Shown piece after piece: positions 39,601 to 42,600 of a stretch of DNA of 64,000 nt; positions within the stretch are counted from its first letter, which is position 1, and each line of letters starts with the position of its first letter. The stretch is taken from contig OZ038528.1 in NCBI GenBank assembly GCA_964036665.1, positions 1,550,001 to 1,614,000 on the forward strand. Direction: 5' to 3'. The notes beneath the pieces are model-generated. The model saw only the letters and a program-made list of their open reading frames with translations. It searched no databases and was not told the DNA's origin. Position numbers and translations under genes: made by a program. This stretch comes from Gordius sp. MW1 (lineage: Eukaryota > Nematomorpha > Gordioida > Gordea > Gordiidae).

Positions 39601-42600
39601 GGTGTACACTTTTTAAAAGGGAATGAGCAGTCTATTAGTCTATGGTCTTAGTTGAGCGAAAGGCCGACCAAACAAAACCCAGCCGTTTTTACAGCACTTC
39701 TATCAAAGGGGAGCTGCAAGACTTTCTTTTTTAATAGAGGGCAATGAAAAAGTTTGGAAAATAATGTCCTAAATATTAGTCATAACAAAGCAGCTTTACA
39801 GTCTTTACACTTAAATAAGAGCTAAAAAGAAATCGGATAAATGATTAAAACAAACCTTAGCCAAAAAGCATGTACTTGCATACATTAATGTTCGGCCTGT
39901 CGTCAAATAAGTATAAAGGAATATCAAGGAAATATCCATTAAATCTATCAATAATCGAAGCTACAAATTATTTATAAGCCAAGCTTAGAGATTGAGCTAA
40001 AAAAGTAGTATACTCATGGGCGTAGCCAGGGGGGGGCATTCAATGCAAAAACTGTGAAAAATAAAAAAAATTATGTCTTGCTCCCCTCTAATTGTACTTT
40101 TAAACGTTTTGCCCCCCCCCCCCTTAATCCAAAACCTGGCTACGCCCATGAGTATACTTAAACCCAGAATCTCAATAGACTAGATCGACTGCTCATCAAC
40201 ATTAAATAAGTGTATTGTTTTTACGCCATTTCGAAATGTGTAATTAAAATGTAATAAAAAAATATTGAGCTAGTTAAACATTAAAAACAGCATTTTAAAA
40301 TATAGATCATTTACAAAATTCGTAAAAAAACAAGTGTGATGATGTGATGTAATAGCAATTGAGTATTATCTGCATTTTAATAAATAATCATTTATCAACA
40401 TTATTTTTTATGGTGGCCCGTCAATTTGCCGAAAACCATCCTGCCCAATTGAATGTCCCAATGTTAAAAAGTGTCCCCCAGTTAGAAAATGTCCCCCAAC
40501 AATAGAGCCTATTGATCATTCAATTTCGGATTAAAGATAAAATTTCGGTATTTTTAAAAATAAAATTGATATTTATTATAAAAAGTACTCCATTTAGGGC
40601 CTTCTTTATGATAATGGGAGGATGGTCGTTAATGTCCCAGGGTGAATTCGGCAAGATGGTTTTCGGCGAGTTGATAAGGCACCATTTTTTATTTATTAAC
40701 TAAAGATTCATCTTTTATTTTTACCAATGGGACACTGATGAAAGACATGGGAGTAGTTAATTTCAAAATGGTGGATTTAATGGTAAACATTTTACCATAT
40801 AAAACATATGACAAGAGCATGAGCAATCTATGTAGTCTATGTGATGGCTTTAAGATAGTTATTATAAGTATATGATAAATTATCATTTTGATGATACTTT
40901 TGGGCCATATTTGGCAAAAATTATTAATTAAATTAAAATTAATGAGCAGGGAAAACATTGAAGTGGGATGGCAATTTAAAATCATTGAAAAATTACAATT
41001 ATTAAAACGATAAATATACACTTTTAACAAATTGCCAAAATATTTAAGGTTAAATTATAATATTTGACTTTTGAATTACTCTGTGCATATGATAACGACC
41101 CGAGAATGATATGATATGAGGCGTTGAATTTTGTTCCACCCTTTACTGTCATATTTTAACTTTAATCCAGATATTTTGATGCTAGCTTCAATCTAAAAAA
41201 GGACATATTTACTTATACACTAATAATAAAATAGACTAACAAAAAGCTAATTTTTGAATCATTCCCACTTGTGCATTCAAAAGCTGTGAAAGAATATTGA
41301 TAACATTAGAGGGTTATCCTTTCATTAGGTTTAACCATTAATTACTCAAAAAAATGAATAACATTTTGTTTTGATGAAGAAATAGCCCGATTTACGGGGC
41401 GTTCGTAATGACGTGCGAAGCGAAAAAAGGCGAAGTTAATTTTTGGGCTAATTTATCAAACTCTTCATTTTTTATATTAATATCTTAATGTTCAATCGTA
41501 AAATTTATCATATATCCATAGACTACATAGACTGCTCATCACGGTATAAAATGTGTGTGTTTTTTCCGCCATTTTGAATAACACTACCGTCCTATACCAC
41601 ATAATGGCGTTTTGCGCTGTGCCGTTTTGTTCGAACAGGAGAGGTAAAGAAAAATGGTTTTGATTCCATAAATAAGTAAGATATTACAAAATATATTATA
41701 TTTTTAAAAAATTTTAACATCATTACAGTTTTTACATTTGTAATTTTTATGAAATGTGTCAATAATAAATTTTTAAAAATATCATATATTTTGTAATATC
41801 TTACTTATTTATGGTATCAAAAAAATTTTTCTTTACCTCTCCTGTTCGAACAAAACGGTACAGCGCAAAACGCCATTATGTGATATAGGACGGTAGTGTT
41901 ATTCAAAATGGAGGCAAATTTCACACACAATTTGCCAGATGGAACATATAACATGGGCAGTCTATGTAGTCTATGCATATATCACGAAAATAACAACTGT
42001 AAATAGGAGGCGTTCACAGTGAAACCGCAGACGATTATTTTCGCCCGCGGCAAAAAGCGAACGAAAATAAGATACAAATCATTTTGTACTTTTCGCGCGA
42101 TGGTTAAAAAATTGAATTTGGTATATATGTATTTTTTATATAATTTTATATGTTTATAGAATAATCACGATCTTATCAGTGAATACCATTAATATATGAT
42201 AAATTTCACGATGAATATAAAGATATTAATAAAAAAATGAAGAGTTTGATTAATTAGCCCAAAACTTCACTTCGCTTTTTTTCGCTTCGCGCGTCATCAC
42301 GAACGCCCCTGTAGGACGGTTGGTAACCGCGAATCAACTAATAGTAACTCTAATTTATATGCCATCTAAAACAATTTATAAATTAGAGACTAATTTGACT
42401 AAATAGTCTCTAGATTTTTTAGCGTGTGACTTTAAAATGATAACAATATAACGTTTTCCTCTTATTGGAGCTCATTCTCGATTAGTCTGTGACTAGAAAA
42501 TTATCTATGCCATACTAATAAGCTCTAAAAAGAGCGAGAACGCTATATGTATGTTATTATTTTTGAGTCACATGCTTAAAGAGATAGGGATAAATTTAGC

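What the first reader, a model, noticed from the sequence alone, without database searches (positions are those of the whole stretch)
41517..41975. P-type MITE consisting of two head-to-head THAP first exons
The 459-bp element is a long inverted repeat with an exact 8-bp target duplication (CATATATC). Each arm contains the same start: a 5' leader, ATG, a THAP zinc-finger beginning ([14 protein letters not shown]) and a splice donor. P transposases begin with a THAP domain next to the 5' terminus, so this looks like two 5' ends of a P element joined head to head. Arm differences are synonymous in the codon seen. Transcription through it would give a hairpin RNA matching the transposase's own DNA-binding exon, so it could repress the parent transposon. 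The structure is seen; the silencing role is inference.
Basis: partly seen in the sequence, partly recalled or inferred. Interest (0 to 1): 0.72.

Follow-up and report, generated by a model that had tools for sequence, protein, structure and literature searches.

The report
Hairpin mini-transposon from P-type element
This is a short, non-coding jumping element, present in many near-identical copies in what looks like an animal genome, built from the two ends of a P-type transposon with part of one end copied backwards so that it folds into a hairpin; it shows how such hairpin elements can arise, while a role in silencing its parent is untested.

Summary
Window 41517-41975 is a 459-bp inverted-repeat element with an exact 8-bp duplication (CATATATC). 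Its left junction occurs at 67 places in a 212-Mb genome. In 40 sampled copies the mean divergence from consensus is 1.5%, and 32 have an exact 8-bp duplication. P-superfamily elements in the same genome share its ends, one with P transposase domains. It is a P-derived MITE.

'Two 5' ends head to head' needs correcting. In 40 of 40 sampled copies one terminus is the P 5' end and the other the P 3' end. The left terminus is 3'-type for about 69 bp and becomes 5'-derived inside a repeat shared by both P ends, CCATTTTGAATAACACT. The loop comes from the P 3' region. Likely origin: a template switch during repair of an internally deleted P copy, then transposition in trans (inferred).

The frame stops after 19 codons and shows no coding constraint. 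A strong RNA hairpin is predicted. Silencing is untested: 10 of 16 P copies share 21-mers with its exon part, but L080 and L078, which carry transposase domains, do not.

The parts
41509..41516 (.). left target-site duplication CATATATC
   Evidence: 32 of 40 copies have an exact 8-bp duplication
41517..41585 (-). left terminus: P-element 3' end (read outside-in), ending in the shared subterminal repeat
   Evidence: 94% over 68 nt to L080; 40 of 40 copies
41569..41585 (+). CCATTTTGAATAACACT, subterminal repeat shared by P 5' and 3' ends; where the left arm changes from 3'- to 5'-derived
41586..41709 (+). inverted copy of the P 5' subterminal region (leader, ATG, exon-1 fragment, start of intron 1)
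   Evidence: 5.5% from right arm in the consensus; same clade
41604..41663 (+). left exon-1 fragment, 19 codons then TGA ([19 protein letters not shown])
   Evidence: no coding constraint; no Pfam match (peptide padded by 3 residues)
41710..41781 (+). loop, derived from the P 3' untranslated/subterminal region
   Evidence: matches 20 of 21 P 3' regions examined, 76-90%; these regions were picked by similarity to L080's 3' region
41782..41975 (-). right arm: P 5' end with leader, ATG, exon-1 fragment, intron start
   Evidence: 89% over 204 nt to L091; consensus 91% over 204 nt to L159
41817..41876 (-). right exon-1 fragment, 19 codons then TGA
41976..41983 (.). right target-site duplication CATATATC

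Best explanation
It is a young, non-autonomous P-superfamily element (P-MITE). SHOWN: its right terminus is a P 5' end and its left terminus is a P 3' end. Its arms pair because the 5' subterminal stretch (leader, ATG, first part of the THAP exon, start of intron 1) is present a second time, inverted, behind the 3' terminus. The change from 3'- to 5'-derived sequence lies in a 17-bp subterminal repeat common to both P ends, and the loop is from the P 3' region. INFERRED origin: after excision, gap repair copied inward from the 3' end of an internally deleted P copy, switched template at the subterminal repeat into the 5' end, and the two newly made ends were joined at AT-rich microhomology. 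INFERRED spread: the hairpin element kept one 5' and one 3' end, the pair that P transposase normally brings together, so transposase made elsewhere could mobilise it. It codes for nothing; the THAP fragments are passengers. Any hairpin-RNA repression of P elements is a possible side effect, untested.
For: 67 left junctions genome-wide with at most one mismatch, 0 in the reversed-pattern control. 32 of 40 copies have an exact 8-bp TSD; the commonest base at each position spells GTTATAAC; mean divergence from consensus 1.5%. P partner: L080, 3431 bp, exons matching THAP, Tnp_P_element, RNaseH_N, GBD and RNaseH_C. Internally deleted P copies L159 (895 bp) and L157 (2088 bp) have 8-of-8 TSDs. L159 has its 5' end 91% to the MITE right arm, its 3' end 92% to the left terminus and its 3' region 90% to the loop; L157 matches the 5' end at 87%, the loop at 83% and the 3' terminus only in short pieces. 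40 of 40 copies have one 3'-type and one 5'-type end. In 79 of 80 arms (40 copies) the arm is closer to the same arm of other copies (median) than to its own opposite arm, the last being a tie; a tree with 6 of the 40 copies agrees: formed first, then amplified. 10 of 12 relatives that share only the 5' end carry the loop segment in normal P orientation. L078 carries a separate 504-bp inverted duplication, 98.6% identical.
Against: The immediate parent was not found. The copies closest to the right arm (L128-L135, L137-L140, about 88-96%) showed no P 3' terminus in the stretches fetched (10 of those 12 were extended); the best copy with both ends is 91% (L159). L080 has at least one in-frame stop relative to L078 and no TSD; no intact transposase was identified, and none was searched for exhaustively. 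In the tree the non-MITE sequence L133 falls beside the left arms with modest support (0.75), so the two arms might descend from two slightly different 5' ends rather than one. The repair step leaves no trace beyond the junctions. Transposition itself was not observed.
Confidence: 0.83

Rival explanations
1. Two P 5' ends joined head to head, the left end having merely diverged.
For: Both arms carry the same leader/ATG/exon start, 94-95% identical.
Against: The left outer 69 bp matches P 3' ends (94% over 68 nt to L080) and not the 5' ends; 40 of 40 copies have unlike ends.
Confidence: 0.05
2. A repressor family: hairpin RNA from the MITE (from read-through, or from a P promoter in the right arm) is processed to small RNAs that silence P elements, comparable to Mu killer.
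For: Very stable predicted hairpin. Exact 21-mers shared with all 16 P copies checked, overlapping exon 1 in 10 of them. Precedent: Mu killer (PMC3440606, abstract and passages).
Against: No expression or small-RNA data. In 6 of 16 P copies, including L080 and L078 with the transposase domain, no exact 21-mer overlaps exon 1. Long arms also follow simply from how the element arose. The termini, not the inside, vary least. Even for Mu killer, that paper favours antisense transcripts over the long hairpin.
Confidence: 0.1
3. The arms are kept because each encodes a THAP-like peptide that acts as a DNA-binding repressor.
For: ATG and the CxxxxC half of THAP are retained in both arms.
Against: TGA after 19 codons; only half of the zinc site; no Pfam hit for the fragment; 69 of 79 substitutions in the frames are non-synonymous, against about 80% expected without constraint.
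Confidence: 0.02

Closest known systems
P-MITEs of Anopheles gambiae (Quesneville et al. 2006, PMC1562414; abstract, passages, sections 6 and 10 read)
   Same: Short non-autonomous elements with P 5' and 3' ends, 8-bp TSD, 5 to 310 copies per family
   Different: There the centre is reported unrelated to P. Here the centre is an inverted copy of the P 5' subterminal region including the THAP exon start, plus P 3' region as loop
Galileo (P superfamily, foldback-like; PMC4168063, passages and section 10 read)
   Same: P superfamily; internal and ORF sequence recruited into long inverted repeats; [quoted passage not shown]
   Different: The recruitment described there is of the last part of the ORF; here it is the first exon, the termini stay unlike, and the result is a homogeneous short MITE family
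Mu killer of maize (PMC3440606, abstract and passages read)
   Same: Inverted duplication of the transposase-proximal end; hairpin RNA proposed
   Different: Mu killer has two copies of the same end (TIRA), is one locus and silences MuDR; here the ends are unlike, it is a multicopy family, and silencing is untested
Drosophila P internal-deletion derivatives (review PMC7776569, passages read)
   Same: Non-autonomous, distinct 5' and 3' ends, subterminal inverted repeats, 8-bp TSD
   Different: Those are described as internally deleted elements; no inverted duplication is mentioned in the passages seen

Membership tests
P superfamily of DNA transposons | 8-bp target-site duplication | tested here: met
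   32 of 40 copies exact, 3 with one mismatch
P superfamily of DNA transposons | termini shared with an element encoding THAP + RNase H + GTP-binding insertion transposase | tested here: met
   L080 shares both termini; Pfam hits on its exons
P superfamily of DNA transposons | distinct 5' and 3' ends with subterminal inverted repeats | tested here: met
   40 of 40 copies one end of each type; shared 17-bp subterminal repeat
P superfamily of DNA transposons | mobilised by a P transposase | not testable with these tools
   needs an excision assay
MITE | short, non-coding, TIR-bounded, many homogeneous copies | tested here: met
   460-bp consensus, mean 1.5% divergence, 67 left junctions, no coding constraint
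Galileo / foldback | long terminal inverted repeats matching from the outer end inward | tested here: not met
   only the outer 19 bp match well, then unlike 3'/5' sequence to about position 50-60, then matching arms
Mu killer-like silencing locus | both ends from the same (transposase-proximal) end of the transposon | tested here: not met
Mu killer-like silencing locus | RNA from the inverted duplication silences the autonomous element | not testable with these tools
   no expression data; predicted hairpin only

The most novel reading that the evidence does not exclude
A P-superfamily MITE that carries one P 5' end (possibly with the P promoter) reading into an inverted repeat of the leader and first exon, so that its own transcript would be a long hairpin against P leaders and exon 1: a multicopy, self-spreading counterpart of Mu killer that moves by the P transposase while damping P expression.
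Probability: 0.1. Interest if true: 0.75.

Novelty: new variant of a known kind. Interest (0 to 1): 0.4.

Why it matters
Where the interior of P-MITEs comes from has been called controversial (PMC1562414, section 10). Here it can be read from one genome: ends, inverted stretch and loop all trace to the P element, and the junction sits on the subterminal repeat, which suggests a concrete route (template switch at that repeat during gap repair). It also suggests why a hairpin element can amplify: this one kept one 5' and one 3' end. If the hairpin RNA proved active it would be a parallel to Mu killer outside plants.

Tried and rejected
Two-5'-ends model: rejected. Coding or peptide-repressor role: rejected (the 79 substitutions include shared ones, so they are not all independent). 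Host THAP gene as source of the arms: rejected, since the arms belong with P ends and the P 3' region. Splice donor at GGTAAAG: not supported, because the open frame and the Pfam THAP match need the donor at CATAA|GTAA. Immediate parent: I fetched 20 of the places listed (5' side), 20 of those (3' side), and 20 of the 218 junction hits. The tool scored only 40 of 103 and 40 of 1148 first-look candidates, so a closer parent could be missed. The closest 5' end was L133 (96% over 206 nt to the consensus right arm), but no P 3' terminus was found in the stretch fetched there. Host identity: the mitochondrial COX1 on contig C12 reads best, to my eye, under the invertebrate code (conserved positions recalled, not tested). 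Paper searches for tunicate, 8-chromosome and bryozoan assemblies (listings only) gave no match I would rely on, so the species is left unnamed and 'animal' is an inference. Searches for a P-MITE with an inverted transposase exon listed no such case by title or abstract start; of the listed papers I opened PMC1562414, PMC4168063, PMC7776569 and PMC4079207 (parts only), and another P-associated MITE, BuT5, was seen only as mentioned in a passage and its citation, and that paper was not read. This is not proof of absence.

Full report
OBSERVATION. The element is at 41517-41975, 459 bp, flanked by an exact 8-bp duplication CATATATC. Arms 41562-41713 and 41767-41918 are 94% complementary. The predicted RNA fold has -270 kcal/mol against -83 +/- 6 for 100 dinucleotide shuffles. 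The longest perfect ungapped Watson-Crick run in this copy is 34 bp. The finding is real and far beyond chance.

COPY NUMBER AND AGE. In the host genome (212 Mb, 12 contigs) the search scored 40 of 1180 first-look candidates, and all 40 matched. I took the window copy plus the other 39. Of 40, 32 have an exact 8-bp duplication, 3 have one mismatch, 1 has two, and 4 have four or more (matches that start or stop short of an end). The consensus is 460 bp and mean divergence from it is 1.5%. Among the 32 exact duplications the commonest base at each position spells GTTATAAC, a palindrome. A junction pattern specific to the left arm is found 67 times with at most one mismatch (control 0). A looser pattern that also hits right arms and relatives is found 218 times (control 0). 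A junction need not mean a whole copy, so 67 counts junctions.

PARENT FAMILY. The P RNase H domain search gave 76 matches (some of them pieces of one locus), of which 30 were cut as loci. L030, L034 and L038 carry the MITE's 5' end over about 200 nt, and L033 a 44-nt piece. L080 (the region around L030) holds a 3431-bp element with both termini. Its exons match THAP (exons 1+2 joined, E 4.3e-19), Tnp_P_element, TNP-like RNaseH_N, GBD and RNaseH_C. It has no matching duplication (3 of 8) and at least one in-frame stop relative to L078. Two internally deleted copies have perfect duplications: L157 (2088 bp, ATCGTGCC) and L159 (895 bp, GTTGTAAA).

ANATOMY. I compared the MITE with 23 P 5' regions (20 fetched, 3 from larger loci) and 21 P 3' regions (20 fetched, 1 from L080). 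These were picked by similarity to L078 and L080, so the shares below are not genome-wide rates. The right arm is a P 5' end (best L091, 89% over 204 nt; the consensus is 91% to the same copy in L159). The left terminus is a P 3' end: 16 of 21 3' regions match it over 49-70 nt at 87-94%; of the other five, four give only shorter pieces and one none. The loop (MITE 194-265) matches 20 of 21 3' regions at 76-90%. Pairwise alignment shows the left arm following the P 3' end through CCATTTTGAATAACACT and then the 5' end. In 40 of 40 copies the left end is 3'-type and the right end 5'-type. In L080 a longer form of this stretch can be read near both ends. So 'two 5' ends' is corrected: the inner arms are both 5'-derived, the termini are not.

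HISTORY. In a tree of the 5' stretch with the consensus and 6 of the 40 copies, the right arms form one group and the left arms another; the left arms have the non-MITE sequence L133 beside them (support 0.75). The consensus arms differ by 5.5%. With all 40 copies, 79 of 80 arms are closer to the same arm of other copies (median) than to their own opposite arm, and one is a tie. The nearest other group is a set of P derivatives sharing some of the MITE's exon changes. Of 20 loci fetched hits, 5 were whole or nearly whole MITEs, 3 matched only about the right-hand 260-270 bp, and 12 had only the 5' end, 10 of which carry the loop segment downstream in normal P orientation. Several of these continue into tandem repeats of P 3' sequence, and no 3' terminus was reached in the 10 that I extended. 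A path from full P through internally deleted P to the palindromic MITE is thus represented, but the exact precursor was not found.

MECHANISM (inferred). P elements leave a gap on excision that is repaired by copying, and aborted repair, slippage or template switching is a standard explanation for defective P-superfamily copies (PMC4168063 section 10; PMC1562414 section 10). Read inward from either P end, the subterminal repeat is in the same orientation. Synthesis from the 3' end could therefore switch at that repeat into the 5' end and continue through exon 1, the intron start and, on an internally deleted template, into the 3' region, before joining the other newly made end at AT-rich microhomology. 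This explains the segments with one switch, one older deletion and one join. The product retains one 5' and one 3' end, which differ in spacing and are paired by the transposase in Drosophila (PMC7776569, passages), so it could be mobilised in trans.

FUNCTION OF THE EXON. The frame reads 19 codons, then TGA, in both arms. In 40 copies the two 57-nt frames hold 79 substitutions (some shared between copies), 10 synonymous and 69 not, against about 20% synonymous expected from the element's own mutation spectrum. There is no sign of coding constraint. The outermost 19 bp vary least (0.4-0.8%, against 1.4-2.2% inside), though copies were chosen by similarity.

SILENCING. The hairpin is plausible as RNA but no expression data were available. 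All 16 P copies checked share exact 21-mers with the MITE; in 10 of 16 some overlap the 57-nt exon part, and in 6 of 16 (L080, L078, L086, L087, L088, L092) none do. L080 and L078 are copies with the transposase RNase H domain. Mu killer is the closest functional parallel (PMC3440606, abstract and passages), but it has two like ends and is one locus, and that paper itself favours antisense transcripts over the long hairpin. I give silencing 0.1.

VERDICT. A real, recently amplified P-MITE with an unusual and well-resolved anatomy: a new variant of a known kind, of moderate interest.

Noticed in passing
window about 40173-40841: Older P-derived non-autonomous element with a 3'-type left and 5'-type right end, no clear duplication, holding another palindromic insert (about 40413-40690).
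   Followed up: partly
window about 40010-40157: Short palindromic element containing CTCATGGGCGTAGCCAGG; a similar stretch lies downstream in L133.
   Followed up: no
C7:17963117-17964459; C8:20786577-20787045; C5:230623-231137 and 239037-239292; C1:8733461-8734090: Short tandem arrays (spacing about 212-213 or 292-305 bp) of P 3'-region sequence; related non-autonomous P elements (such as L130, L131, L134, L137) contain such repeats, suggesting P-derived satellites.
   Followed up: partly
L078:3388-3891 and 5367-5870: A P copy with a 504-bp internal inverted duplication, 98.6% identical.
   Followed up: no
C8:2829490-2830827 and places on C1, C3, C4, C5: Nuclear copies of mitochondrial COX1, one covering nearly the whole profile.
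   Followed up: no
L074, L075: Two MITE copies with the same 12 bp on each side, about 17.8 kb apart, probably a segmental duplication.
   Followed up: no
window 6824-7234 (-) and 15222-15686 (+): ORFs with a weak caspase-domain match (below the Pfam cut-off) and an OTU protease match; two other ORFs tried (43864-44436, 49170-49787) had no Pfam match.
   Followed up: no
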